Source: Dillenia suffruticosa
Lineage: Eukaryota > Streptophyta > Magnoliopsida > Dilleniales > Dilleniaceae
NCBI GenBank assembly: GCA_033439265.1
Contig: JAVTVX010000020.1
Coordinates: 17,688,001-17,752,000 of the forward strand
DNA: 64,000 nucleotides
Direction of reading: 5' to 3'
Of this stretch, positions 33,146 to 64,000 are shown piece by piece (position 1 is the first letter of the stretch; each line of letters opens with the position of its first letter). A program made the position numbers and the translations under genes. The notes under the pieces are model-generated. The model made no database searches. It had not been told where the DNA came from and was given only the letters and a program-made list of their open reading frames with translations.

Positions 33146-33451
33146 TGATTAAGACTATGATAACTATACAAGCAATGGCAATCGCCGCCAGACTATCTCA
33201 GTTTCCTCACATTGACATAAATCTATTTCATTATCGGATAAAAACTGGTTTTTCGTACATGTCAAAGTTGATCAAGCACCTAGAATTAAACGCTTAATTT
33301 TATGTTTATTTGATTAAAAAAATTCAAATTCCAATTAAATGCATGAAATTGCTGTGTTGGTGGATAGAGGGAAGCAATTAGCTCTCTGGAGTCTGGACTA
33401 GTATAATAGAACAGCAAATGTAAATAAACAGTCGCTCGGTGAAGATGATAC

Positions 33452-33833
33452 TGTCACAACAAGAGGAAATAGAGTATAGTTACACAACAAATATCAGTTA
33501 GCTTAACTGAAAGCAGTTATGCAGTTAAGTGGTTAGGAGGTTAGAACATCAAACAATGTATAAATAGATTGTATCAGGAGAGAACAGGGTATGAAAAGAA
33601 AGACTTACTGGTTATCCTTCTCTCTTGCTTCCTTCTTCCTCGCCCTCTTATCCTTCTTCTTCTCCCTCTCTCTCTCTCCTCCTCTCTACTCTAATTCTTT
33701 CTCAAGCTATTCGTCAGACGTCTGCAGCAACTGGTGTGATAAATTGCTGTACAAGTAAGTAAAAGTATCAGCAGGTTGGTCAGTGTCGACTTGTTAAGTA
33801 TACATAAGGCGACTCATCGTAAAGTCTGTGACA
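33452..33833 (+). repeat. 5' LTR of the Reina element
   Basis: TGTCACAACAAGAGG...GTCTGTGACA. It contains ATGTATAAATAG (33556-33567), a good TATA box, followed by CT-rich leader sequence, so transcription probably starts within the next ~40 bp. Confidence 0.95.
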
Positions 33834-33838
33834 AAATT

Positions 33839-33850
33839 TGGTATCAGAGC
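33839..33850 (+). other. Primer binding site (initiator tRNA-Met)
   Basis: TGGTATCAGAGC, 5 bp after the 5' LTR; primes minus-strand DNA synthesis. Confidence 0.95.
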
Positions 33851-33876
33851 TATCCTTCCTCGGCAAAAGCACAACC

Positions 33877-36800
33877 ATGGTGGAAAGAACCAGATTGAAA
33901 ACTATGGAGGAACAACTAAAGAAACAAGACATAAGGATGCAAGAAGTCCAATCAGAATTGGGAACCCAGTACCGGCAGCTGGAAGCAAGAATCGACACTC
34001 TTGCCCTTGATATGGACAAAAAATTCAACACCATAATGCAAATGATGAATAAAGATAAAGAAGAGATTTCAGAAGCAGATCGATTGAACAAAACTCCAAT
34101 CCTCCCAACTCCGACGGAAGGAAGATTCAAAGGTGATATTGGGACTTCACAACTCAGGAAGGAAACCAATGGAAAGAACCACTTACCAAATCCACCAAAA
34201 GTTGAATTGCCCATATTCAGTGGAGACAATCCTCAAATATGGTTAAGGAAATGCCTTAAATTCTTTAAAGTTTACCAAATACCAAACTGCAGTTGGGTGG
34301 ACACGGTGGAAATGTACCTGGATGGTAAGGCTGAAATATGGTTTCAAGGAGTGAAGACATCAAAACAAGAAGTGAACTGGGAAGAATTTTCCCAACTCCT
34401 TTGTCAAAGATTTGAAGGAAAAGGGGTACGAGATGTTGTGGAAGAATTTAACAAGCTGTTTCAGCAAGGAACCATGGCAGAATACCAAGAAAGGTTTGAA
34501 GAAATGTGGTCATTCATGCTCCAGGTAAATCCTAAACTGACTGAGAATTACTTTATCTCCAGTTTCATTAGTGGAGTTAAAGAGGAGATTAAACCCATTT
34601 TAAGAATGTTGAAACCAACCACCCTACTGCAAGCCTTTGAAATTGCATCTCTTCAGGAGCAGTCTCTTGAATTAACTAGACAAAAGAGGATGGGTATGGG
34701 TAAGAACTGGGATAATAGTGAAGAATTGAGGAGGAACAAGATTACGACACCTCTCAATAATCACAATAAACTTCCCAAGGTATCTCCACAAGAGATACAT
34801 TATCGTAGAACTAACAATTTGTGTTTTAAGTGTGGAGAAAAGTATGCTCCTGGCCATCAGTGCAAGTTTAAGCATTTGAATGTAATCATAGCAGCAGAGG
34901 AGGAAGATGGATTAGTTAGTAATGAAGTAATGGAGCAAAATGACAGCAGTGGTGAGGCACTCGATGTATCTCTTTGTACCCTCTCTGATTCATTAGGAAG
35001 AAAGACTATAATCCTTCAAGGAACACTACAAGGATTGATAATATCTATACTAATAGATACAGGGAGTTCAAATAGTTTCATCAATTGTATGTTGGTGGAG
35101 AGACTAAAAATGGAATCAGAAAAGGATGAACCCCTGCAGGCAGTGTTAGCAGATGGGAGCAAGGTAAGGAGTGACACTAAAATCAAGGGAGTTAAGTGGA
35201 GCATACAAGGGTATAGCTTCTCATTTGATTTAAAGGTCATTACCTTAGGAGGATGGGATATAATATTGGGTGTGGATTGGATGTACAATTTTAGTCCCAT
35301 AACTTTTGATTTTAGAATGCTGCAAGTCAGACTAGCAGGTGAAGGAAGAGAAATGGTGTTAGAAGGAATGGTGAAAGATCCAAAAATGAAGCTAATCCGT
35401 GGGAAGAATACTAAGAAATTCAGAACACAACAAATACATAGTTGTGGTAACATTAACATATCTGCAGAAAACCATCAACTTCCACTGCACCAGTCCATTA
35501 CAGACCTTCTGCAGCAATTCAATGATGTTTTCTCTACACCCACATCACTGCCCCCAGAAAGATCCCATGACCATTCAATACCTCTTAAACATGGAGCCCA
35601 ACATTTCAAGTTACCACCTTATAGATATCCACATTCTCAAAAGGCTGAAATAGAAAAGCAAGTTCAAGATATGATCAATCAAGGAGTTGTCAGACATAGT
35701 AGCAGCCCCTTTGCTTCCCCAGTTCTGTTGGTGAAAAAGAAAGATAACTCTTGGAGGTTTTGTGTGGATTATAGACAGCTTAATAACATTACAGTCAAGG
35801 ACAGGTATCCCATTCCCAACATTGACGAATTACTAGATGAATTACATGGTTCAAAGCTATTTTCCAAGATTGATCTTAGAGCCGGTTACCATCAGATTAG
35901 AGTCAAACCCAAGGATATAGCTAAAACAGCCTTTCAAACTCACCATGGACATTTTGAGTTCCTAGTAATGCCATTCGGCCTCACAAATGCACCTGCTACT
36001 TTTCAGTCACTGATGAATCAAGTATTTCAGCCCTACCTGAGGAAATTTGTGCTGGTTTTTTTTTATGATATTTTAGTATACAGTCCTAATTTGCAGTCCC
36101 ATATCCAGCATCTACAAGAGGTCCTTCTAATGTTGAGACAGCATGAGCTGTATGCTAAACTATCCAAGTGCTCATTCGGTCAATCTCAAGTTGAGTACCT
36201 AGGACACATAGTGACAGACTCAGGAGTGAAAATGGACCCACTGAAAATCGACTGCATCATGAATTGGCCTACCCCAGTTTCTGTCAAAGCTCTGAGAGGT
36301 TTCTTGGGCTTAACAGGCTATTACAGGAGATTCATCAAGGGTTATGGAATCCTAGTCAAGCCCCTCAATGATCTGCTCAAGAAGGATAACTTCAAATGGA
36401 ATGAGGAAGCTGATCAAGCATTTCAGCAACTTAAATCAGTCATGTGTTCAGCACCTGTGATGAGGTTGCCAGATTTCTCCAAACATTTTATACTGGAGAC
36501 TGATGCATGTGCAAAGGGGTGGGGGCTGTGTTAATGCAAGAAGGACAGCCTATTGCTTACTTAAGCAAAGCTCTTGGAGTTAAGAGTCAGGGAATGTCTA
36601 TATACGAGAAAGAGTTGATGGTTGTTGTTATGGCAGTCACAAAATGGAAGCACTACCTGATAGGCTACCACTTCATCATTAGAACAGACCATCAGAGTCT
36701 GAAGTACCTCTTGGAACAAAGGCTCACAAATTCCCTACAACATAAATGGCTTACTAAGCTCCTTGGATTGGATTATGAGATCCAATACAAGAAAGGTTCT

Positions 36801-38321
36801 GAGAATCGAGCAGCTGATGCTCTCTCCAGGAAGGAGTTACTAGTAGAAGAACAACAGGAAGGGCTGCTGATGGCCACCTCCCTGGTGAGACCCCAATGGA
36901 TAAAAGAGGTAGTTCAAAGCTATATTGAAGATGAGGATTGTCAGAACATGATAGCCCAACTAACATTAGATCCAGAAAGCAGTTCCGAGTTCACATTACA
37001 AGGAGGACTTCTTAAGTTCAGAAAGAAGATATATGTAGGGACAGGATCCCAGCTGCGAACCAGGATAATCACCCAGATGCATAACTCTGCAGTAGGAGGA
37101 CACTCAGGACAAAAGGGAACTCTGCAGAGAGTCAAATCTGCATTCTATTGGCCTTCCATGAGAGCAGATGTCACTAAGTATGTCCAGGAATGTGATACCT
37201 GCCAAAGGAACAAGTCTGAGCATGTGGCCTATCCAGGATTGCTTCAACTTCTACCTATACCCTCCCAAGCATGGGCTCAAATCAGCATGGATTTCATAGA
37301 AGGACTTCCTGAATCTCAAGGATATGATACTATCCTAGTGGTCATAGACAAGCTCACCAAATTTAGCCACTTCATCGCAATACAACACCCTTACACTGCT
37401 ATGAAAGTAGCTCAAGTATTCGTGGACTATGTGTTTAAGCTGCATGGGCTTCCAGAAGCTATAGTGACAGATCGAGACAAGGTCTTCACCAGCTTGTTTT
37501 GACAAGAATTGTTCAAGCTGGTAGGAACTCAATTGAAATTAAGTAGTGCATACCACCCACAAACAGATGGACAAAGTGAAAGACTCAACCAATGTCTAGA
37601 ATGCTATTTGAGATGCATGATTTCTGACAGACCAGGACAGTGGTATCAATGGTTAAGTCTAGCTGAATGGTGGTACAATACGAACTATCACTCAAGCATA
37701 CGAATGACTCCCTTTGAAGCCTTGTATGGCTATCAACCTAAATCCATCCCAATGGGACCATATTTGGAGACTGTTATACCAGCTGCAGAGAATTTTGTCC
37801 ACAATAGACAGGCAATGCTACAAATCTTGCATGATCACTTGGCAAAAGCTCAGAACAGAATGAAGATTGCAGCAGACAAGAATAGGACTGAAAGGCAGTT
37901 AGAAGTGGGAGATTTTGTCTATCTCAAACTACAGCCTTACAGGCAACAGTCAGTGGAGTTGAGGAAGCAACTTAAGCTGTCTTCTAAGTATTATGGACCC
38001 TTTCAGGTCATGGCAAAAGTAGGCCAAGTAGCATACAAGTTGCAATTACCAGTTGAATCTAAAATACATCCGGTTTTCCATGTCTCATTGCTGAAGAAAA
38101 AGGTAGGCCCTACTCAAAATCTGATGCCCAATTTACCTATGGTGGGGGCTAGTGGGCAGGCCTTGGTTCAGCCGGAAGCAGTCTTACAAAGAAGAATGGT
38201 CAAGAGGAATAATAAACCAATTAGTCAATGGCTAATCAGATGGCTGAATTTAAGTCCAGAGGAATCCACTTGGGAGGATGTCAGCTTCATCAACTCTCAA
38301 TTTCCAGAATTCAGTCCTTGA
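33877..38321 (+). pseudogene. Reina gag-pol polyprotein with three lesions
   Basis: Start chosen at 33877 because an earlier in-frame ATG (33838) overlaps the primer site. gag occupies residues 1-~315, followed by a zinc knuckle CFKCGEKYAPGHQC (34822-34863). Protease has the active-site DTG (35056-35064). RT (about 35600-36200) has RFCVDYRQLN and MPFGLTNAPATFQ, but the catalytic FDD reads FYD: TAT (Tyr) at 36064-36066. RNase H has LETDAC, after which a 1-base loss in a G-rich run (36516-36525) shifts the frame into TAA at 36532. The next frame carries the rest of RNase H and integrase (HX-HX-CX2C zinc site around 37078-37205, DFIEGLP, TDRD). TGA at 37500-37502 replaces an expected Trp. The end (38160-38310) is a chromodomain, KPISQWLIRWLNLSPEESTW. 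Confidence 0.93.
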
Positions 38322-38334
38322 GGACAAGGAATTC

Positions 38335-38349
38335 AAGGAGGGAAGATAT
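38335..38349 (+). other. Polypurine tract of the Reina element
   Basis: AAGGAGGGAAGATAT directly before the 3' LTR; primes plus-strand synthesis. Confidence 0.85.
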
Positions 38350-38731
38350 TGTCACAACAAGAGGAAATAGAGTATAGTTACACAACAAATATCAGTTAGC
38401 TTAACTGAAAGCAGTTATGCAGTTAAGTGGTTAGGAGGTTAGAACATCAAACAATGTATAAATAGATTGTATCAGGAGAGAACAGGGTATGAAAAGAAAG
38501 ACTTACTGGTTATCCTTCTCTCTTGCTTCCTTCTTCCTCGCCCTCTTATCCTTCTTCTTCTCCCTCTCTCTCTCTCCTCCTCTCTACTCTAATTCTTTCT
38601 CAAGCTATTCGTCAGACGTCTGCAGCAACTGGTGTGATAAATTGCTGTACAAGTAAGTAAAAGTATCAGCAGGTTGGTCAGTGTCGACTTGTTAAGTATA
38701 CATAAGTCGACTCATCGTAAAGTCTGTGACA
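38350..38731 (+). repeat. 3' LTR of the Reina element
   Basis: Same length as the 5' LTR with one difference across 382 bp by direct reading. Confidence 0.95.
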
Positions 38732-39483: not shown

Positions 39484-40102
39484 TGTAATACCCAAATAGA
39501 AAAAAAAAAAAAAAAAGGAAAAATTAAAATTAGGGCTTAAAGCCCTAATTTTCTCCTCTCTCTCTCTCTCTCTCTCTCTCCCTCTCTCTCTTTCCCTCTC
39601 TCTCTCACTCCGTCTCTTCCTCTCCCGCTGCCACCGCCGCTCGCCACCGCACCCAGCCGCCGCTGCTCCTTCCTCCCTCCCGCGAGCGCCGCTGCGCTCT
39701 CCTTCGCGCGACTGCGCGCTCCTTCGTACTACTGCGCGCTCTCCCGAATGCGCACAACGAGAGCCTAGCGCGAGCAGCGTGCGAGCCCGGTGCGAGCCCA
39801 GCGCCAGCCCAGCGCCAGCCCAGCGCCAGCCCAGCACTAGCCCAGCGCCCGAGCCCAACGCGAGCCAGCGCACGAGCCCCTGCGCGCCCCAGCACGGGCT
39901 CCCCTGTGCCAGTGCGCCCTCCAGCACGCCCCAGCACGAGCACAGCGTGCTCTAGCGCGCGAATCACTGCTCGAGAGCGCCCCAGCACGAGCGCGAGCGC
40001 TCCAACACGCTACCCATTGCGCGAGCGCTCGATCCAGCTTGCGAGCGCAAGCCCTAGCCATTGCGGCCCAGTTTGGCCCGCGGCCCATTGCCGACCCGCA
40101 GG
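39484..40102 (+). repeat. Truncated 5' LTR of the Tekay element
   Basis: It parallels 42423-43101: the GGGCTTAAAGCCCTAATTTT palindrome, a (CT)n tract, then GC-rich DNA with GCGCCAGCCCA repeats, ending at ACCCGCAGG where the 3' LTR continues and this copy jumps into pol. Confidence 0.9.
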
Positions 40103-40203
40103 CTGTTTTATCAAGAAAGATGATTTTTAGACTGTTTTAGAGATAGATTAATTGTATACTTATAGAGTTTCCTTAGACTGTTTTATCAAGAAAGATGATT
40201 TTT
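40103..40203 (+). repeat. 26-bp direct repeat at the deletion junction
   Basis: The same 26 bases (starting CTGTTTTATCAAGAAAGATG) occur at 40103-40128 and 40178-40203. The second copy is the natural pol sequence; the first, with ~50 bp after it, is joined to the LTR. It marks the repair junction of the internal deletion. Confidence 0.85.
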
Positions 40204-42374
40204 GGAGGCCTGAAGGGCCACCACTGACGTTTGCGAGTGAGAGACGGGTGTTACCCCGTGGTATTGTATTAGTGAGGAAAGCCAGACGTATAATACGTCG
40301 GGGATGTATGACAGATCTGACACATATGATCGATACCACCATACAGAATCCGAGACTTGATGAGATTCTGGTGGTACAGAAGTTTCCTGAAGTATTTCCC
40401 GAGGAGCCACCCTAATTATCATTGATTCGGAAGTTCAATTTTGAGATTGATCTGCCTCTAGGGATTACTCTTATTTCTATTCCACCATATAGAATGGTAC
40501 AATTCGAGCTGAGTGAGCTCAAGATTTAACTACAGAAATTGTTTAAAAAAAAAAAATTCATCAATCCAAGCACCACACCTTAGGGTGCTTCGATATAATT
40601 TGTAAAGAAGAAATATAGAACACTTAAACTTATTATGGATTATTGGCAGTTGACTAAGGTCACTACAAAGGATTGATATTCATTTTCCCACATCGATGAT
40701 TTGTTTGATCAGTTTCTCAGTGATAAGGTCTTTTCGAAGATAAATCTTCGATCGCGTCATACTCGGTTACGGGTTAGGGTCGAGGATCTGTCCAAAAATC
40801 GCATTCCGTATAAGCATGGACACTTTGAGCCCTTGGTCATGCCATTTGAGCTGACCAATGTCCTAGTTGCATTTATGGACTGAATAGATCGGGTCTTTTA
40901 TGAATTTCTTAGATCGATTTGTTATTGTTTCCACTGATGAAATCCTAATCAGCTTGCAGAGTGTTGAGGAGCATGCTCAGTGTCTTACTCTCAAACGACA
41001 GAGAGAGTGCTTACTTCTCTTTATTGGTAGGATTCCGTACCTTAGGAGTCAGTGTGGTTAATGATGTGTAAGAAGCATCATTAGCCAGATATGAGGACAG
41101 GCAAACCTTGTTCAATCATGTCAAAGACTTCGGATTCCGAGAGAACGGATAGATAGTGTTTGGAGAACGGATTTGTATTTCAGTTGACATTGATTTTCGC
41201 AAGGCCATACTTAAGGAGGCACACTCCTCAACTTAAGCATTCATCTAGGTAGTACCAAGATGTATTGAACTATTCGGGATAGTTATTGGTGGCCTAACAT
41301 GAAACGAGAAATTGAGGATTTTATGGCAAGATGTTTAGCGCCAATAGGTAAAAGGCCGAGCACCAACGTTTAGCTTGTACTTCACAGCCTTTTTTTTCCC
41401 ATTCTTGACTGGGAGTGGGAGTATGTTACGATAGACTTTGTAGTAGAGTTGCATCGGACTTTGACACAGTATGATGCCATTTGGGTGATAGCTAATTAAT
41501 TTACTCGGTCCGTACATTTTCTCCTTAATCACAGCAGAAGCATGTTGAGCCCAGAATGCAAGAGGCTTTGGGCACGCGGCCTAGTTTTAGTACAGCATAT
41601 CACCCATAGACAGATGGTCAGTTGGAGAGGACCATTCAGACGCTCGAGGATTTATTTCGGGTTTGTGTTATGGATTTTCGGGGTAGTTGGTACAGGCATT
41701 TACCGCTGATGGAGTTTGCGTATAATAATAGTTATCAGGCCAGTATCGGCATGCCACCCTATGAGGCACTCTATGGTAGGAAGTGTCGTACCCCGTTGTG
41801 CTGGGATGAGGTAGGCGAGAGACGCCTTACCATTGTTGAGCTAGTCGAGGAAACTAAAGAAAAGGTCAGAGTGATCCGCGAGCGGATGAAAGCCACCCAA
41901 GACAGATAGAGGGCATATGTGAATCGAAGACGCCGACCTTTAGAATTTGAGGTGGGCGATATGGTGTTCTTAAGGATTTCCCCCTTGAGGGGACTAGTAT
42001 GACATGGGCAGCGAGGGAAGTTGAGCCCCAGATATATTGGGCCCTTCCGTATCCTTGAGAGAGTCGGAAGTGTAGCATATAAATTAGAGCTGCCAGTAGA
42101 CCTATCGCGCATTCACGATATATTTCATTTCTCAGTACTTAAGAAATATCAGCCAGATCCTGTACATATTTTAGAGGCTCTGCCAGTTGAGCTTCGAGAG
42201 GACTTGAATTTACCTGTCCAGCCCGTGACTAGTTTGGATCGACAGGTCAAAAAGCTATGGAGCAAAGAGGTTCCTCTTGTTAGAGTTTTGCGGAGGAGCG
42301 ACCAGGTCGAGGAACAGACCTGGAAGCTTGAGGAAGCCATGAGGAGACAGCACCCCCAGTTGTTTGCTACTTAG
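40150..42374 (+). pseudogene. Tekay pol remnant (RT, RNase H traces, integrase, chromodomain)
   Basis: LDCFIKKDDFWRPEGPP to VVQKFPEVFPEEPP (40152-40415) is the protease-RT junction. RT pieces include DDLFDQFLSDKVFSKINLRS and HGHFEPLVMPFELTN (40701-40880). RNase H and the integrase zinc site are nearly unreadable (40900-41600). Integrase is best at 41580-41909 (TDGQLERTIQTLEDLF, then WDEVGERRL) and its C-terminal part at 42021-42374 ([20 protein letters not shown], then [14 protein letters not shown]), ending in a chromodomain-like segment. More than a dozen stops and frame changes. Not functional. Confidence 0.88.
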
Positions 42375-42422
42375 CCTTCTTTTAGTTTCGAGGATGAAAC
42401 TTGTTTTTAGGGGGTTAAAAAA

Positions 42423-42485
42423 TGTAATACCCAAATAGAAAAAAAAAAGGGAAAATTAAAATTAGGGCTTAAAGCCCTAATTTTC

Positions 42486-42528
<43 letters not shown>

Positions 42529-44987
42529 TCTCTCTTTCCCTCTCTCTCTCTCACTCCGTCTCTTCCTCTCCCATTGCAGCCGCCAGCACCGCCGCTCGCC
42601 ACCGCACCCAGCCGCCGCTGCTCCTTCCTCCCTCCCGCGAGCGCCGCTGCGCTCTCCTTCGCGCGACTGCGCGCTCCTTCGCGCGACTGCGCGCTCTCCC
42701 GAGCGCGCACAGCGAGAGCCCAGCGCGCGAGCCCAGCGCCAGCCCAGCGCCAGCCCAACGCCAGCCTAGCGCCCAAGCCCAGCGCGAGCCAGCGCACGAG
42801 CCCCTGCGCCTCTGCACGCTCCTGCACGAGCGCCAGTGCGCCTCTGCACGAACCCCTGCGCGCCCCAGCACGGGCTCCCCTGTGCCAGCGCGCCCTCCAA
42901 CACGCCCCAGCACGAGCACAGCGTGCTCCAGCGCGCGAATCACTGCTCGAGCGCGCCCCAGCATGAGCGCGAGCGCTCCAACACGCGACCCATTACGCGA
43001 ACGCTCGATCCAGCTTGCGCGCGCTCGATCCAGCTTGCGAGCGCGAGCCCTAGCCATTGCGGCCTAGTTTGGCCCGCGGCCCATTGCCGACCCGCAGGCC
43101 CGCCAGACCCATCAGGCCCGCAGGCTCACCAGTCCTGCCAGCCCATCATCCCGCCAGCCCACGGCCCATGACAGTCCGTGAGCCTCTGCGTAGGTAAATG
43201 ACTTAAAGTTTCGATTTTCATACTAGGGTTTTGAAATTCTCGAGTAATTGGATTTCAATTGTTCACAATTGTTTTAAATTTGGAAACATTCAGGTTTTAG
43301 ACCAAATCAACGGGCAAATGAAAGCTAGATCCGAGATCTGAGGAATCCTAGGTGAGAGAAAGGAAATCTCTTTAACTTTTGAATAAAATTTGTCAAATTA
43401 GGTAGTTTTGGTTGGAAAGAAAAATTGAATATTCATAACTAGGCCCTTATTTGATATCGAACCGTGGTGATTTGATTAGGTTGGCTATTTTGGTGATTCG
43501 ATTGAGGGGAGCATTGCTCTACGTATTATGATTTTATTGGGGAGTGCGCTATCCTCCCCAAAACAGTGAATGAGATTTATTTCAATACTTTTGTTAAATA
43601 TGTAAATCCTGTTTTACAACATTTTGATAATGAGCATGATTTGTCGTATGTTGGAAATGTTTTGACTGATTTTAAAATTGACTTTTGTGAACCGTTGGAG
43701 TGTCCAAAAACTGTATTGAATTATGAAATTATGCATCCATGTGGTTGAAATGTATAATGTGCCATTTTATGCTATATGTTGCATTGGTTTATGAACCTGA
43801 TTTCGGCACATTTTGATATGATATTGGTTTTGGCCTTGAGGGCTTTGATATGTATTGTTCCGTAGCTACGAAGGACACCGTGAAAGACGCTTTGGTGGCG
43901 TCCGGATATGCCTAGGCCTGGGGTATCCCACGAGTTGTCGTAATTCGATTATCGACACGGTACTAGCCAGGTTGAACCCGAAAGGGGGAGGATTTGGATT
44001 TGGATTTGATATCCTCTCCAAGTCTAGCATCTGGACGAGGTTCGTCGCCAACGCCAGGGTAGAGAGCACTTTAAATAAACTTACATATAACACCCCCAGT
44101 GCGCCTGTCATAGGTCGCGGTAGACCTCTGCCTGGACATTTTCGGCTGGCAGCTCTATGATTTTAATGACAGTGATTTGGATGCATATTTGACTCGAAAT
44201 GCGTGCTAATGATATATTGTTGAAATGAAAAGTATGATGATTTGAAATATGATTCGTATACTTATGTTTTGACACTCCAGTTTCATACTTCATATTTGAT
44301 GATTGCATTGACTCACTCACTCACTGAGTATTTTTTTCCCGAGTACTCACCCATCATTTCCCTTTTATTTCAGAGATAGTATTTGACAATGAGCGTCGCT
44401 TTTAGGACGCTCAGTATCTTTGGGAGTTCAGGTCTGGACTTGAGGAGTCATTGTGTATTTCCGCTGTAAATTTGTATTGGTGATGTATATGTATTTTGAG
44501 GTCTATAAATGATCATTTTTATAATTCTGGGATGACTGTATAAATATGGACATTTAAATTGTGGAACTCTCATGTCACTGCATGACATTGCATTGAGGCA
44601 TTTCTTTTTCGTTGTGTATGTATTTGGGAATGTGTCATGTCTTAGAAGTGTCCTCTAAGATCGCTCGGTGCCTCCTCTAAATCACAGGAGGGGTGACTGG
44701 CGGCTGTCCATGCCTTTGACGGGGGCATGGCAGTAGAGATCTGTGGCTAGGTTATTGAAAATTTTTATAGTCTTGCGTTATTTGAATGTCGACTGTGAGA
44801 TTGGTTGATTTTGGAGAGACCGGGATGACCATTTGATTTTAATACATGATGATTGTGTTTTATACAGAGTAAATTGTACTTGGGAAACCTCTGAAATATT
44901 GAGAGTTTCTGTCCGATTTTCTATAAAAATACAGCAGGCATTCAGGATAACGGGCGGCTGTTCACGATCCCGGTTCGGGGCGTGACA
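42423..44987 (+). repeat. 3' LTR of the Tekay element (2.57 kb)
   Basis: It follows a TTTTAGGGGGTTAAAAA purine tract. It contains a (CT)n tract (42489-42553), a GC-rich block with GCGCCAGCCC repeats (42590-43170) and a long non-coding 3' part whose last ~430 bases match 1-433. Apparent reading frames in the GC-rich block are composition artefacts. Confidence 0.92.
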
Positions 44988-57495: not shown

Positions 57496-58261
57496 TCATA
57501 TGTCACGCCCCGAACTGGGGTCATGAACAGCCGCCCGTTGCCCTGGATACCGACTACATTTTTACTGAAAATCAGGCAGAATCTCCCCATATTTCAGAGG
57601 TCTCCCATGTACAATTTAACATGTAATATTCACAACCATCCTGTCAATTTAATAAAAGGGTCATCCCGGCCTCAAAACCATTAACCAAACCACAGCCGAC
57701 AATCAGGACAACGCAAGGCTATAGAAATTTCTAACAGTTCTAGCCACAAACCTCTACTGTCATGCTAAACTAGAGTATGAGCAGCCGCCATACCGAGCGA
57801 ATCTAAATGTTTATTCACATGTACAATAAATTCCCAAGTTAACATTTTGAATACATATAGGTGTCTCAATGCAAGTGAACCTAGTCAATATGAGAGTTTC
57901 TCGAATAAATATCCATAATTATATAGTCATCCTAGAAATTAAATAGATGAATACATTAATCAAGCTAAAATCTCCAATAATCGTAACGGAAGATATAGTA
58001 ACATCCATACCCAATCACGGTGCTATCAAGTCCACGTCACAAGTATGAAATCACAAAATTTTTCTTCAATCCGAAACTAATCCTGTGGGAAAGAAAGTGA
58101 GGGGTGAGTATCTATGGGAGGATACTCAGCAAATGAGGGGATTGAGATCATGCTATCAATATTGAGGGTGAATTTGGAGTGTCAAAGCATATAACATAAT
58201 ATCGAGTGTACAAAAATAACGTGCTATTTCAGACTAAAACATATCTCAAGGCACACATCAG

Positions 58262-58439
58262 AAAATAACATATGCATCCATCCATGTATCAAGTCATATA
58301 TGTAGAGTAGACCGAACAAACAATCCCGACAATGGTCTACCTCGACCAAGGAAATAACATATGCATCCATCCATCCATCAAGTCATATATGTAGAGTAGA
58401 CCGAACAAACAATCCCGACAATGGTCTACCTCGACCAAG
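58262..58439. repeat. 89-bp tandem duplication inside the LTR
   Basis: Units 58262-58350 and 58351-58439 differ only at a GTA/CCA position in an otherwise exact copy. Confidence 0.93.
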
Positions 58440-60381
58440 GACGGGCGCATTGAGGGTTTTCACTATGTAAATATCAAATATTGACTCTCTACCCCAATGT
58501 TGGCCACAGGCTACTCCAACTAACCTGTAAATAATAATAATAATACATATATATAGTCAGCCGTGTATGGTGTCCCGCCCAGTGCTAGACAGAGGTAAAC
58601 TCACGTCCTCCCCGATGAGGGTCAACCTAAGACACCCATACACATGACAATCTGGCGGATACCTCCGGGCGAAATGTATCCGGGCACAAGGGGTGTCTCT
58701 ACCAAATGTCCTTCGTAGTTACGGAATGCTATAGGAAGCATATCACCATATCACCAAGTCAGCCGGGCACGTAACCCCATGCATCGCATCATCATGTCGG
58801 CCAGGCATATAGCCCCATGCATTGTAACATAACGTCGGCCGGGCGTATAGTCCAAATAGTACATGTAAATCCATTTAAAACTACGTGTCAATACAGTAGA
58901 AACATTAAAACATGTCAGTATGTTAAAAAAGAATGACACAGTATCCGGTTATCAAACTCATGGATACAATTCAATAAAATTAACAGTTGGAACACTCCAA
59001 TGGTCACAAAAATATGTCTATCAAAATATAAAAATTTAGTTTTCACACGTATAGAAATCATGTTGTTTGAAAATCGGTAAAGTATGATTTGTTAATCAAT
59101 AGTAGATATTAAAGTCCTACTCACAGTTCAGGGAAGGTGTGCACTCCCAATTCCAAACCAATCCGAATTCAACTTCCCTCTTTGAACCCGAATATGTTAT
59201 CCTAAAGCAATGAATTATCAATTTCCACTTAAAATCGTTTGTCTTATACAAGTAGAAATTCTTTGAAAATTTCTAAACTCAAATCTCCAATTCCGGCTCT
59301 TTTCATGCGTATACAACACTTCTTATCCTAAATTTTTACCCTAAATTTGATAAATAGCTCGAATGGGTCCAAAATCCCTCACCTAGAGTTTTCTCGGATC
59401 GCAGACCTTTGTCCAAATGTCTCATCGATCACTCCAAGATCTGAAATACTACTTATCAAGATAGGGTTTATTAGTTAGGTTCAAACACTTAGATCGAAAG
59501 CAAAACCCTAAGTCAATTACCTACGAAGAGGTTCATGGGCCGTCACGAGCTGTGGGCTTCGGCTAGCGGGCTTGCGGGTCTGCGGGACAGTGGCTAGCGG
59601 GCCGGCTGGCCTGCGAGCTGATAGGCCTGCGAGCTGATGGGCCTGCGGGCCGGCAGTGGCTCGTTGGCCTCGAGCACTCGCGGGGTGGCGCGCTCTAGCG
59701 CAAGCGAGCGCTCATGCGCAGGCACGTTGTGGCGTGCTCGAGCTGTGGCGCGCTCGCTCGATCGCGCACTTGCGTTGTAGCGCGCTGACGGAAGGACACA
59801 CTGTGGCTTGATCGCCTGCAAAGGCGCACGCTTGGGGAGGCAGCGGTAGTCACGCGTGGTGGCGTGCGGTGAGCGGGGGGATCGCGGGTGGCGCGATGGT
59901 AGTGAAGCTCGCGGCGGTGTGCAATTGGGAAGGGAGAGCGATCGCAAGAGATCGCGAGAGGGAGAGAAACTGTGAGAGAGAAACCGAGAGGAAAAAAAGA
60001 AGAAGAAGAAAATGAAGATGATGGTGGTGGCCTGTTGATGGCGGAGCTCGCGGTGAAGGAGGACCGGCGCCGCGGTGGGGGAGAGAAACGAAGAGTCAGG
60101 GAGAGAGAGAGAGCGAGAGAGAGAGAGGGGTTAGGGTTTCCAACTCTAATCCCCAAATCAAATTTGGGGACACAGCGTTTTGCCCCAAAACGCTACATCT
60201 CCATTTTTTTATTTTTATTTTTTTTACACATATACATATATTTGGTATTCATTTTTTGCTAGAACGCGAATTTTGTGCAAATGGAGTTTATTTCGATCAC
60301 GGACCCGGCAACTTAAGAATATACCAAAAATAAAATTTAAAAACCCCCAAAATCAAACACCAATATAATTAAATAAAATTT

Positions 60382-60407
60382 CTATATATATATATATATA
60401 TATATAT

Positions 60408-60442
<35 letters not shown>

Positions 60443-60446
60443 TTTC
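60382..60446. repeat. (TA)n(TTTA)n microsatellite
   Basis: A TA dinucleotide run followed by about ten TTTA units near the 5' end of the LTR (minus orientation). Confidence 0.95.
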
Positions 60447-60591
60447 GAGACCAGTACATTAGTACGGACACCACAGTGTCGGCGTTATATTTTCTAACCC
60501 CCTAAAAACAAGTTTCGTTCTCGAACTAAAAGGAAGTTGTACGGGGATAGAAACTACTCAGAGAATATCCCCTCATAGTATGCTCTAGCTC

Positions 60592-63020
60592 CTAAGTCTC
60601 CTCAACAAGCTCTATACTGCTGATGCGCCTCTCACCAATCTCATCCCAACACAAAGGTGTGCGGCATCGCCTCCCATACAATGCCTCGTATGGAGGCATT
60701 CCGATACATGCCTGGTAATTGTTATTGTATGCAAACTCAACCAATGGAAGGTATCGATTCCAGCTACCATGAAAATCAATGACACATGCCCGAAGCATAT
60801 CCTCAAGCATCTGAATCATCCTCTCTAACTGGCCATCCGTCTGAGAATGATACGCCGTACTGAAGTTTAGTCTAGTGCCCAATGTCTCTTGCAACCTGAG
60901 CCAAAACCTAGACGTGAATCTGGGATCCCTATCTAAAACAATCGACACAGGCACCCCGTGAAGCCGAACTATGGTATCAATATAGAGACGTGCCAATGCC
61001 TCCAAGAGATAATCACTACGGGTAAGGATAAAATGTGCAGATTTGGTGAATCGATCAACAATCACCCAAATCGCATCATGCCGCGTAGAAGTCCGTGGCA
61101 ACTCCATCATGAAGTCCATAGTAATATGCTTCCATTTTCACTCAGGAATGGGAAGAGACTGCAGCGTACCCGCTGGACGCTAATACTCTGCCTTCACCTA
61201 CTGGCACACTAAGCATCGTGTCACAACATTCGCCTTGTCCAGATAATAATCTATAATCAAATCATAATCTTTCAGCAACTCTAACCATCGTCTCTGTCTA
61301 AGGTTCATCTCCCTCTGAATGAACAAATACTTTAGACTCTGATGGTCAGTGAAAACTCTACAAGTCACTCCATAAAGATAATGTCGTCATATCTTTAATG
61401 CAAAGACTATGGCTGCTAACTCCAAATCATGCGTCGGATAATTCAGCTCATGCTTTTTCAACTGTCGCGAAGCATAACAATCACCCGACCATCCTGCTTC
61501 AAAACGCAGCCCAATCCCTACCTATTGGCATCACTATACACAACATACTCTTGGCTGTTAGTGGGGAGAGCTAAAACTGGTGCCGACATCAGTCGTTGTT
61601 TGAGCTCCTGAGAGCTCGTCTTACAATGATCGTCCCAAAAGAACTTGACGTCCTTCTGCGTCAGTCTAGAAAGTAAAGTAGCGATCCTGGAGAATCCTTT
61701 TACAAACCGCCGATAAAACACCGCAAGACCAAGGAAACTCCACACTTCGGTCATCGTTTGTAGCTGCTCCACCTTAATATGGCCTCCACCTTCTACGGGT
61801 CAACATAAATACCTTTCACAGAAACAATATGGCCAAGAAATCCAATTTGTCTAAGCCAAAATTCACACTTGGTGGATTTGGCATACAACTGTCATTCACG
61901 GAGAATCTGCAACACCACCCTAAGGTGTTGTGCATGCTCCTCATTGCTCTGCAAATATACGAGGATATCATTGATTAACACAATGACGAACCAATCCAAA
62001 TAATCATGAAAAATCTGATTCATCGGGTCCATAACGACTGGTGGTGCGTTGGTCATCCCAAACGACAGGACTACGAACTCGAAATGTCCATATCGGGTGC
62101 AGAATGCGGTTTTGGGTACGTCCTCAACCCTGATCCGCAACTGATGATATCCAGATTGAAGATCGATCTTTGAGAAAATCCATGCACCCTAGAACTGATC
62201 AAATAAATCATCAATACATGGCAGAGGGTACCGATTCTTGATGAAAATCTTGTTTAGCTGCCTATAGTTCATACACAATCGTAGAGTCTCATCCTTCGTC
62301 TTCCCGAATAATACCGGAGTACCCCACGATGAAGTATTTGGATGGATAAAACCCTTGTCCAGCAATTCCCGTAACTGGACCTTGAGCTCTCTAAGCTCAG
62401 CTAGCGCCATTCTGTATGGCGAGATAGTTATGGGAGTGGTACTTGGAGTTAAGTCAATCTCGAAATCAAACTCCCGAATTGGGGGTAGTCCGGGTAACTT
62501 TTCAGGAAATATATCTGGGAACTCCTGTACCACTAAGACCTCCTCAAGCCTCGGCCCTTCCACTGTGGTGTCAATAACATGAGCCAAATATGTCGTGCAC
62601 CCTCGGTGTATCAATCTCTTGGCTTTTATCACTGATACAACACAACGAGGTAACACTCGTCTCTCGCCTGGGAACCTCAACAACGGCCCCTCGGGTTTTC
62701 GAAACTCCACTTCTTTGATGAAGCAATCTACAAAGACTCTATACATGCTTAGCCAATCCATCCTTAGGATGGCATCGAAATCCATCATCTCAAGTGGAAT
62801 CAGGTCTGCCTCAAGTACCGCATCTCTGATCGTGACCTTGCTCCCTCTGAGACGGAATCTCTAAGTATCTGCTCACCGAGAGGAGTGATGACCAATATCT
62901 CCTCTTCAAGTGGCGACAAAGGCTTACTCAACCCGTGGGCAAAAGAAGCTCTCACATACGAATAGTTTGACCCGATGTCAATGAAGACACGAACGTCGAC
63001 TCCCCATATGTTCATGACTC
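60592..63020 (-). pseudogene. Tekay pol (protease, RT, RNase H, integrase), C-terminus deleted
   Basis: From 63020 down: protease VFIDIGSNYSYV (the active-site DTG-type triad reads D-I-G). The protease-RT linker and RT follow at 62189-62788 ([22 protein letters not shown], [20 protein letters not shown]). RT continues at 61892-62140 ([19 protein letters not shown]), where the catalytic FIDDILVY reads LINDILVY, Asp to Asn. RNase H (61518-61772) has GLAVFYRRFVKGFSRIATLL. The integrase core (60592-61119) is open for 175 codons with DFMMELPRT, LDRDPRFTSRFW, YHSQTDGQLERM and MPPYEALYGRRCR. It ends ELVEET, after which the integrase tail and chromodomain are missing. Confidence 0.9.
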
Positions 63021-63072
63021 CTATTGTGAGAAAATAAAAAGATCTGTTGATAAATATGGAAAGATATATGCT

Positions 63073-63103
<31 letters not shown>

Positions 63104-63219
63104 CAAAATGTATATACATACCAACATAGTTAAGCCTCTAAGGGTTTAACTAGTGATGGTGCTCAAAAAAATGTACATAAAAAAATATCTCTAAACATGG
63201 GGATCAGTGGGAGGAGCAC
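63021..63219 (-). other. Intron-like 199-nt insertion between gag and protease
   Basis: On the minus strand the coding sequence reads NVIIG up to ATTATTG|GTGCTC (donor) and resumes at CACAATAG|GAGTCATG (acceptor) with VMNIWGVDVRVFID. Removing 63219-63021 rejoins the frame exactly, inside a glycine codon (phase 1), at the point where related elements are colinear. The insert is AT-rich with a (TA)n run (63078-63104) and a pyrimidine-rich TTTTTATTTTCTCACAATAG acceptor region, all like plant introns. It could alternatively be a small non-autonomous insertion. Confidence 0.6.
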
Positions 63220-64000
63220 CAATAATCACGTTAGGACTCGCCTGAGCGTCCTCCTGCGTCATTGTGTATACACGGGTCTGTGCCCTCTGCTGCTGTCGGA
63301 ATGGTTTTGGCACTGTGTTGCTCCCGACTACTATCCGTGGAGCGGTGTGACTCGAGTGCACAGGTGCTCCCTACTGTCCTCCTCAGGGAACACTTGAGTA
63401 TCCTGAAACTATTTGACCTCCAAATCCTAACTCAGGGCAGGCGCTCTTGATATGTCCTAGCTTCCCACACCGAAAGCATGTAACAGGCACCCTACATTCT
63501 CCAAAAAGGTGGTGTCCACCACATCGACGGCAAAAGGGGGTGCCGCTGATCTGAAGTCTGAGTAGTGGCACTAGGAGCCGGTGCTCTAAACCTCTGAGGC
63601 CACGATTCCTGCCTAGTATGTGCCTGTTTCGGCTAAGAAGAGCCTCCTTAATATCCTGAAGTCCTGCCCTTCTTCGAGCCCTGGCTCGAAGAAGCCCCAG
63701 ATCTCTTCTTCCTTTGCTCTCTGTACTCCCGCTGTCTTCCCTCGGCACGAACGATCTCCTCCGCCCTAAGTGTTGAGTCCATGATCTCCGCAAAGGAGAG
63801 ATTAGGAGTCACTGTCATATACCTCATAATGTTCAAGTTGAGACCATCCTGAAACTTGAACTGTAGCTATTTCGACGTAACCAAGTCTGGAACTGTAGCT
63901 ATTTCGGCGTAACTAGTTGCCTCATCTCCGTCTCATACTCTGTTACTGTCCTGATTCCTTACCGCAAGTACAAAAACTCTGCCCTCTTGTGGTCCTGCTG
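63220..64000 (-). pseudogene. Tekay gag (C-terminal part), partial at the window edge
   Basis: Downwards from the edge: a gag segment near 63840-64000 (an ELRQLVT-like stretch before a tandem-like repeat of GGAACTGTAGCTATTTCGGCG), LSFAEIMDSTLRAEEIVRAE (63640-63840), a basic hydrophilic region, and a zinc knuckle CFRCGKLGHIKSAC (CX2CX4HX4C, about 63439-63480), preceded by a second knuckle-like CRRCGGHHLFGEC. After the knuckle the frame has two stops (TGA at 63383-63385, TAG about 12 bases further) but continues readable as VPKPFRQQQRAQTRVYTMTQ to the intron-like junction. Binds element RNA and forms the particle; this copy is broken. Confidence 0.82.

What the first reader, a model, noticed from the sequence alone, without database searches (positions are those of the whole stretch)
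63021..63219. Exact GT-AG intron-like sequence between gag and protease of a Tekay-type retrotransposon
Seen: two conserved coding blocks (ending NVIIG and starting VMNIWGVDVRVFID) are separated by 199 AT-rich bases with GT and AG at the ends; removing them restores the frame inside one Gly codon. Known: Ogre elements carry a spliced intron in pol, and some Athila-like elements splice env; I know of no gag-protease intron described for Tekay chromoviruses. Inference: this could be a spliced regulator of the gag/pol ratio in one sub-lineage, or a short insertion that happens to mimic an intron. An intron should be lost when an element passes through spliced RNA, so persistence in several genomic copies would imply packaging of unspliced RNA, as in Ogre.
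Basis: partly seen in the sequence, partly recalled or inferred. Interest (0 to 1): 0.75.

Follow-up and report, generated by a model that had tools for sequence, protein, structure and literature searches.

The report
Intron-like insert in a plant retrotransposon
Dozens of copies of one plant retrotransposon family carry, exactly between their coat-protein and enzyme genes, a roughly 200-base insert that begins and ends like an intron and that four related copies lack; it is likely spliced out of only part of the RNA, which would let the element set its ratio of coat protein to enzymes.

Summary
On the minus strand, 199 T-rich bases (63219-63021) split a Ty3/gypsy element inside one Gly codon between gag and protease; uninterrupted relatives have the same residue spacing.

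Of 67 copies inspected in the window's own 596-Mb genome, 63 have the insert at this base (30 found with the insert in the query, 20 more found blind to it, 13 by insert sequence alone). GT and AG are both kept in 43 of 49 aligned copies; length varies in all three frames; a gag-frame stop lies just inside in 48 of 49. The other four, found by searching for it, have the exact empty site G|G and form a separate, more diverged clade: the insert was most simply gained once and spread, two LTR pairs dating to about 4-5 My.

Likeliest: a partly spliced intron; unspliced RNA makes Gag and is packaged, spliced RNA makes Gag-Pol, as in Ogre. Splicing is not shown: no RNA data, a weak donor, and no spliced retrocopy seen inside the insert-bearing group. 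A non-autonomous family moved in trans remains a serious rival.

The parts
63021..63219 (-). Intron-like insert, 199 nt, GT...AG, between gag and protease
   Evidence: 50 unique copies from two searches plus 13 from a third; absent at the exact junction in 4 related copies
63214..63219 (-). Putative 5' splice site GTGCTC, weak
   Evidence: score -2.99 with a recalled matrix; position +1 G in 47 of 49, +2 T in 49 of 49, +4 C and +5 T in 49 of 49
63021..63040 (-). Putative pyrimidine tract and 3' splice site, TTTTTATTTTCTCACAATAG|G
   Evidence: score 2.99, second best of 36 AG sites in the region; the best (3.46) is at 63044, inside the insert; terminal G in 44 of 49 copies
63191..63193 (-). Stop codon in the gag frame, insert nt 27-29 (after ...NVIIGAPPTDPHV)
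   Evidence: TAG 45, TAA 3, GAG 1 of 49 copies
63214..63229 (-). Arm 1 of a stem covering the putative donor
   Evidence: duplex -17.8 kcal/mol, 0.75% of 2000 shuffles as good; 0 of 780 flank 20-mers
63153..63164 (-). Arm 2 of the stem (GAGCACCATCAC)
   Evidence: 8-bp core fully paired in 31 of 49 copies, no compensatory changes
63116..63121 (-). Strongest donor-like site of the region (TTG|GTATGT), inside the insert; its use would not fuse gag to pol
   Evidence: score 3.57; GTATGT in 26 of 30 copies (counted)
63013..63015 (-). First ATG of the protease frame after the insert
   Evidence: lost in 6 of 30 copies, 5 of them as GTTGTG/GTTGTA
63220..63274 (-). End of gag: RVYTMTQEDAQASPNVIIG (last codon split by the insert)
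   Evidence: translation; matches relatives
63431..63481 (-). Gag zinc knuckle (zf-CCHC)
   Evidence: PF00098, E 5e-06
62862..63020 (-). Protease N-terminal part, VMNIWGVDVRVFIDIGS... (approximate end, a frame change follows)
   Evidence: PF08284 RVP_2 profile 23-81
62192..62860 (-). Protease C-terminal part to start of RT (223-aa frame)
   Evidence: PF08284 E 3.9e-12; 556 protein relatives
61895..62188 (-). Reverse transcriptase piece
   Evidence: PF00078 E 6e-15
61521..61799 (-). RNase H piece
   Evidence: PF17919 E 2.3e-07
60595..61137 (-). Integrase core piece, order PR-RT-RH-INT
   Evidence: PF00665 E 5.3e-05, below its curated cut-off
57501..60489 (-). 3' LTR of the copy (approximate ends); its partner lies beyond the window in L031
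   Evidence: 2856 aligned bases, 90.6% identical, K2P 0.103

Best explanation
A 199-base GT...AG insert carried by one subfamily of a plant Ty3/gypsy (probably Tekay) retrotransposon, exactly between gag and protease, likely works as a partly spliced intron that sets the ratio of Gag to Gag-Pol. Shown: the insert sits at the same junction in 63 of 67 copies inspected; the other four, sought for that purpose, have the exact empty site; it stops the gag frame 27 nt in and has stops in all frames; its length is free to vary. Inferred: unspliced RNA is translated into Gag only, is packaged and is copied back with the insert; a minority of RNA, kept low by a weak donor that can pair with sequence downstream in the insert, is spliced and translated into Gag-Pro-Pol. 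Proposed origin, untested: an insertion that duplicated ATTGG (TG...CA inside it); the donor GT then comes from the junction, and one T-to-A change in the right-hand copy (ATAGG) made the acceptor AG.
For: Copies with the insert: 30 of 30 fetched from a search with it in the query, the window's own copy among them; 30 of 30 fetched from a protease-RT query blind to it, 20 of them new; 13 of 13 further places fetched from a search with insert sequence alone were again between gag and protease. GT and AG both intact in 43 of 49. Lengths 179-231 nt, remainders 0/1/2 mod 3 = 21/13/15, so it is not constrained to be read through. Exact empty site in 4 genome copies, 0 hits for the reversed control pattern; they form one clade, support 1.000, apart from all 50 insert copies. 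Register unique within 45 nt. T 43% against 23% and GC 28% against 51% in 30 copies, as plant introns are (criterion quoted in PMC3735527, passages). Good acceptor with pyrimidine tract. On the branch to the insert family, net protease-RT divergence by codon position is 0.013/0.012/0.056, i.e. Pol was under purifying selection on that branch.
Against: No RNA data. The donor GTGCTC scores -2.99 (recalled matrix); a much better donor (63121) and a slightly better acceptor (63044) lie inside the insert. The pattern search (up to 3 mismatches) found no empty site among the insert-bearing copies: the 4 hits are a separate clade, so no spliced retrocopy was seen. After insertion the splice sites decay like the rest: base-matched conservation of the insert equals that of the flanks, transversion divergence 0.015 against 0.018. 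Selection on Pol after the gain is unproven: variants not of deamination type, shared by 3 or more copies against singletons, synonymous 14 of 39 against 55 of 250, Fisher p=0.069 (variants in exactly 2 copies left out); deamination-type variants show no such lean, 82 of 237 against 14 of 38. The stem shows no covariation and is fully paired in only 31 of 49.
Confidence: 0.6

Rival explanations
1. The insert is never spliced. It destroyed gag-pol in one copy, and the family then spread as a non-autonomous passenger, using Gag-Pol from insert-free relatives. GT...AG is coincidence.
For: Weak donor. No empty site seen among the insert-bearing copies. Insert-free relatives exist in the same genome. 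Evidence for selection on Pol after the gain is only p=0.069, and the stem-branch signal could predate the gain.
Against: GT and AG at the register fixed by the empty site, about 0.5-1% by chance; good acceptor with pyrimidine tract and intron-like composition; non-autonomous families often lose their coding region (recalled), whereas these copies keep the gag and pol pieces compared, at 88% mean mutual identity.
Confidence: 0.28
2. Gag and Pol are two separate ORFs; Pol starts at its own ATG just after the insert or by ribosome shunting, and the insert is a translational spacer.
For: An ATG lies at the second full codon of the protease block (63015-63013). Two ORFs separated by a gap are known for Bianca (172 bp on average; PMC6317226, passages).
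Against: The ATG is missing in 6 of 30 copies; 5 of these carry GTTGTG/GTTGTA and group together in the trees (two groups; in the larger tree four of the five lie in one group of six, support 0.934, which also holds L016 that keeps the ATG), so some source copies probably lacked it. The insert has stops in all frames (30 of 30). It offers no reason for the exact GT...AG.
Confidence: 0.08
3. A copy-specific insertion (MITE, solo LTR) in a dead element that happens to mimic an intron.
For: The copy is broken: two stops in the last 177 nt of gag, several frame changes. Ends TG...CA with ATTGG/ATAGG, 4 of 5 alike, could be an old LTR-type insertion.
Against: The same insert sits at the same base in 63 copies. 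Of the 40 best-scored places of the insert itself, 33 were read and lie at this junction; the other 7 coincide with match rows. Such an event may be the origin in the ancestor, but not in this copy.
Confidence: 0.02

Closest known systems
Ogre (Ty3/gypsy, Tat lineage) intron
   Same: An intron in the polyprotein region; splicing of a subset of transcripts allows translation of the whole polyprotein (PMC6317226, passages).
   Different: [quoted passage not shown] Here it lies between gag and protease, in a chromovirus-like element, and splicing is predicted.
Bianca (Ty1/copia) two-ORF spacer
   Same: Two ORFs separated by about 172 bp (PMC6317226, passages).
   Different: A copia element (recalled); no intron shown in the passages read.
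BARE1 and EVADE (Ty1/copia) spliced Gag RNAs
   Same: Splicing near the gag/pol border changes the Gag to Pol ratio; U-rich, 104-nt intron in BARE1 (PMC3735527, passages; PMC12786077, passages). Spliced truncated-Gag RNAs also in two sunflower copia elements (PMC7730604, passages).
   Different: There splicing makes Gag-only RNA and the unspliced RNA makes Gag-Pol; here the logic would be the reverse.
Introner-type intron gain
   Same: A mobile insertion becomes an intron (PMC9860276, listing and start of abstract only; that a target duplication can supply a splice site is recalled).
   Different: Here the host gene is itself a retrotransposon, and no copy of the insert outside this junction was seen among the best-scored places.

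Membership tests
Ty3/gypsy LTR retrotransposon | Domain order GAG-PR-RT-RH-INT between LTRs | tested here: met
   zf-CCHC, RVP_2, RVT_1, RT_RNaseH_2, rve in that order (rve below its cut-off); LTR pairs of about 3 kb for two copies
Tekay chromovirus | Chromodomain at the end of integrase | tested here: inconclusive
   The window copy is truncated there. In the one C-terminal piece tested (L033:5510-6163) Pfam gives SH3_Tf2-1 (E 3e-25) and no chromodomain; the tail looks chromodomain-like by eye only
Tekay chromovirus | Placement in the Tekay clade of an RT tree | not tested
   Relatives found are plant proteins without lineage names; 'Tekay' is recalled from the look of the sequence
Spliceosomal intron | GT...AG ends at an exact coding boundary | tested here: met
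   43 of 49 copies keep both; empty site joins exactly
Spliceosomal intron | Functional donor and acceptor strength | tested here: inconclusive
   Acceptor good, donor weak, by a matrix recalled rather than taken from a file
Spliceosomal intron | Removal from RNA | not testable with these tools
   No transcript data; no spliced retrocopy seen among insert-bearing copies
Ogre-type regulated intron | Unspliced RNA is the packaged form | tested here: inconclusive
   Persistence of the insert through retrotransposition fits (63 copies), but would also follow if it were never spliced
Mobile insert (MITE, solo LTR) | TSD, terminal repeats, free copies elsewhere | tested here: inconclusive
   Only GG is duplicated exactly; ATTGG/ATAGG 4 of 5 with TG...CA inside; no terminal inverted repeat seen by eye; no free copy among the 33 places read of 40 scored

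The most novel reading that the evidence does not exclude
An intron was born inside a retrotransposon by a single insertion whose target duplication, altered by one base, supplied the acceptor; the element then used it as a splicing switch between Gag and Gag-Pol and spread it through the genome. It would be an independent invention of Ogre's strategy at gag-protease in a plant chromovirus, with the empty site still present in the same genome; the literature searches listed no such case.
Probability: 0.25. Interest if true: 0.75.

Novelty: new variant of a known kind. Interest (0 to 1): 0.55.

Why it matters
How plant elements with one polyprotein make more Gag than Pol is an open question outside a few cases. 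[quoted passage not shown] A chromovirus-like family with a GT-AG insert exactly at gag-protease, and with insert-free relatives in the same genome, would add a new lineage and a new position, and would make both the birth of an intron and its effect on Gag:Pol directly testable. If it is not spliced, the family is instead a clear case of a broken element carried to many copies by its relatives.

Tried and rejected
Rejected: copy-specific insertion (63 copies carry it). Reading the higher raw conservation of the insert (0.968 against 0.938 and 0.939) as selection: it vanishes once bases are matched and goes with its low GC and CG content. Reading the stem as proven: no covariation.

Led nowhere: viral-contig scans with the RT piece and with alignment A1 (2 and 58 stretches matched, none a relative); protein search with the protease piece (1319 candidates, none at E<=0.001) and with the gag knuckle piece (no candidate); Rfam on the window (0 matches). 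The first alignment of copies had 12 minus-strand loci turned the wrong way and was replaced. The second gypsy piece in the window (about 39.5-43.1 kb) does not reach the junction, by eye. Papers: the lists show none titled as a Tekay or chromovirus gag-protease intron; I saw listings, and passages only of PMC6317226, PMC7730604, PMC6523491, PMC3735527, PMC12786077, PMC11963269 and PMC9289625. Steinbauerova 2008 and Oberlin 2017 were not held and are known here only through papers that cite them.

Not obtained: gag-only DNA and protein P0011 searches of the genome, so more distant subfamilies with or without the insert were not surveyed. Copies inspected are the best-scoring of a capped first look (40 scored of 2061, 3115 and 685 candidates), not a random sample, and not all scored rows were fetched (30 of the 38 full-length rows, 30 of its 40, 13 new of 40, with 20 already held and 7 unread). 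L069 and L077 lie 4 kb apart and may be one duplicated copy. Of 50 unique copies, L047 was left out of the 49-row alignment because of about 540 extra bases; L036 was kept (longest insert, diverged start). L064 was left out of the codon-position test because part of its protease is missing; L066 was assumed to be the outgroup there.

Full report
What is there. The finding lies on the minus strand in a degraded LTR retrotransposon. The order of recognisable pieces is gag zinc knuckle, RVP_2 protease, RT, RNase H, integrase, with a 3' LTR at about 57.5-60.5 kb and its partner just beyond the window. Gag ends ...RVYTMTQEDAQASPNVIIG and the protease block starts VMNIWGVDVRVFIDIGS. Between them are 199 bases, 63219 to 63021, starting GTGCTC and ending CACAATAG. 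The copy is broken elsewhere by stops and frame changes, so it is not itself functional.

Are the boundaries exact? Yes. Plant relatives in the protein collection (556 hits, 120 fetched) run through this junction without a break. Of the 19 fetched relatives with a recognisable active site, 15 reach across it, and all 15 have the same 14 residues from the Gly position to the catalytic Asp (counted by eye). Pfam puts the Gly at position 24 of RVP_2 both here and in P0011. Some of these proteins are gene models that may already have had introns removed; others come from short contigs.

Is it one copy or a family? A search of the window's own genome (596 Mb, 37 contigs) with the junction gave 38 matches over essentially the whole query: the window itself and 37 others at 82-92% (my count of rows). 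The 30 fetched all have the insert at the same base. Because that query contained the insert, I repeated the search with protease-RT only: 30 of 30 fetched (of 40 full matches) again have it. The two sets make 50 different copies. A third search with insert sequence alone gave 40 scored places of 685 candidates: 20 were copies already held, 13 were fetched as new and all lie between gag and protease, and 7 were not read but coincide with match rows. So 63 copies read carry it there, and no free copy was seen. These are the best-scoring copies, not a random sample.

Empty site. A 27-base pattern across the joined flanks (up to 3 mismatches) hit four places and its reversed control none. In all four, gag runs straight into the protease with G|G exactly where GT...AG removal would leave it. 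They are on average 76.9-82.4% identical to the insert copies, whereas insert copies are 88.1% identical to each other, and they form one clade with support 1.000. The tree is unrooted. By its branch lengths the midpoint falls on the branch of L066, an empty copy (my arithmetic), and other plant relatives lack the insert, so gain in the insert family is simpler than loss. If the root lay among the insert copies (the empty clade attaches beside a group of seven of them, support 0.965), the empty clade would instead be an exact loss, which is what copying of spliced RNA would give. Either way the event respects the GT/AG boundaries. No empty site was found among copies of the insert family itself.

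Features of the insert. In 49 aligned copies GT and AG are both intact in 43; the length runs from 179 to 231 with remainders 0/1/2 = 21/13/15 mod 3; the gag frame meets a stop at insert nt 27-29 in 48. All of 30 inserts have stops in all frames. T averages 43% against 23% in the flanks and GC 28% against 51%. The acceptor is good and the donor weak; a stronger donor (63121) and a slightly stronger acceptor (63044) lie inside the insert (matrix values recalled); the inner donor keeps GTATGT in 26 of 30 copies. Sequence around the donor can pair with GAGCACCATCAC downstream (duplex -17.8 kcal/mol; 0.75% of 2000 shuffled inserts do as well; 0 of 780 flank 20-mers). The 8-bp core is fully paired in 31 of 49 copies with no compensatory change, so a role in masking the donor is only a suggestion.

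Age and selection. LTR pairs of two copies are 90.6% and 88.8% identical (K2P 0.103 and 0.125), about 4-5 My at 1.3e-8 per site per year (rates recalled; 7-9 My at 7e-9). After insertion the copies decay neutrally: base-matched conservation is the same in insert and flanks, and transversion divergence is 0.015 in the insert and 0.018 in the flanks. On the branch leading to the insert family, taking L066 as outgroup, L065 and L067 as sister and subtracting within-group variation, net divergence in a 669-nt protease-RT frame is 0.013, 0.012 and 0.056 at codon positions 1, 2 and 3; position 3 exceeds the mean of the others in 99.85% of 2000 bootstraps and twice that mean in 96.35%. So Pol was under purifying selection on that branch, but part of it may predate the gain. 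Inside the insert family, variants not of deamination type shared by 3 or more copies lean synonymous (14 of 39 against 55 of 250 singletons), p=0.069; deamination-type variants do not (82 of 237 against 14 of 38). This does not settle it.

How it most likely works. Full-length RNA keeps the insert, makes Gag that ends eight residues after the shared Gly, and is packaged and copied, which is why the insert persists. A minority is spliced at the weak donor and makes Gag-Pro-Pol. This is Ogre's logic (PMC6317226, passages) at a different place and in a different lineage, and the reverse of BARE1 and EVADE (PMC3735527; PMC12786077; passages). Every step about RNA and protein is inferred. The main rival is that the insert is never spliced and the family was moved by the proteins of insert-free relatives; I give it 0.28. 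Pol starting at its own ATG is unlikely: that ATG is lost in 6 of 30 copies, five of which group in the trees (two groups; four of the five in one group of six, which also holds one copy that keeps the ATG).

Origin. Only GG is exactly duplicated at the ends. A wider reading, ATTGG on the left and ATAGG on the right with TG...CA inside (the commonest form, 40 of 49 copies on each side; TG in 43 and CA in 45), would fit an LTR-type insertion whose right-hand target copy changed one base and so produced the acceptor AG. This is a proposal; the donor GT needs no change in it.

Verdict.

Noticed in passing
33444-38731: Another LTR element with 390-bp LTRs (33444-33833 and 38342-38731) that are 99.2% identical and long gypsy-type reading frames of 900, 332 and 272 aa between them; apparently a young insertion.
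   Followed up: no
39501-43099: A second degraded gypsy piece with a GC-rich block of about 600 bp repeated in the same direction at 39501-40103 and 42433-43099 (84.7% identical); it does not reach the gag-protease junction.
   Followed up: partly
58260-58437: Two head-to-tail copies of an 89-bp unit, 97% identical, inside the 3' LTR.
   Followed up: no
63116-63121: The strongest donor-like site of the region lies inside the insert and would give a 101-nt intron that does not fuse gag to pol; possibly a competing donor.
   Followed up: partly
L047 and L036: L047 has about 540 extra bases between the insert and the protease; in L036 only insert bases 35-199 align to the window's insert and its insert is unusually long.
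   Followed up: no
63021-63219: The insert has no CG dinucleotide, against 5.9 per 100 bases in the flanks; 26 of 30 copies have none.
   Followed up: partly
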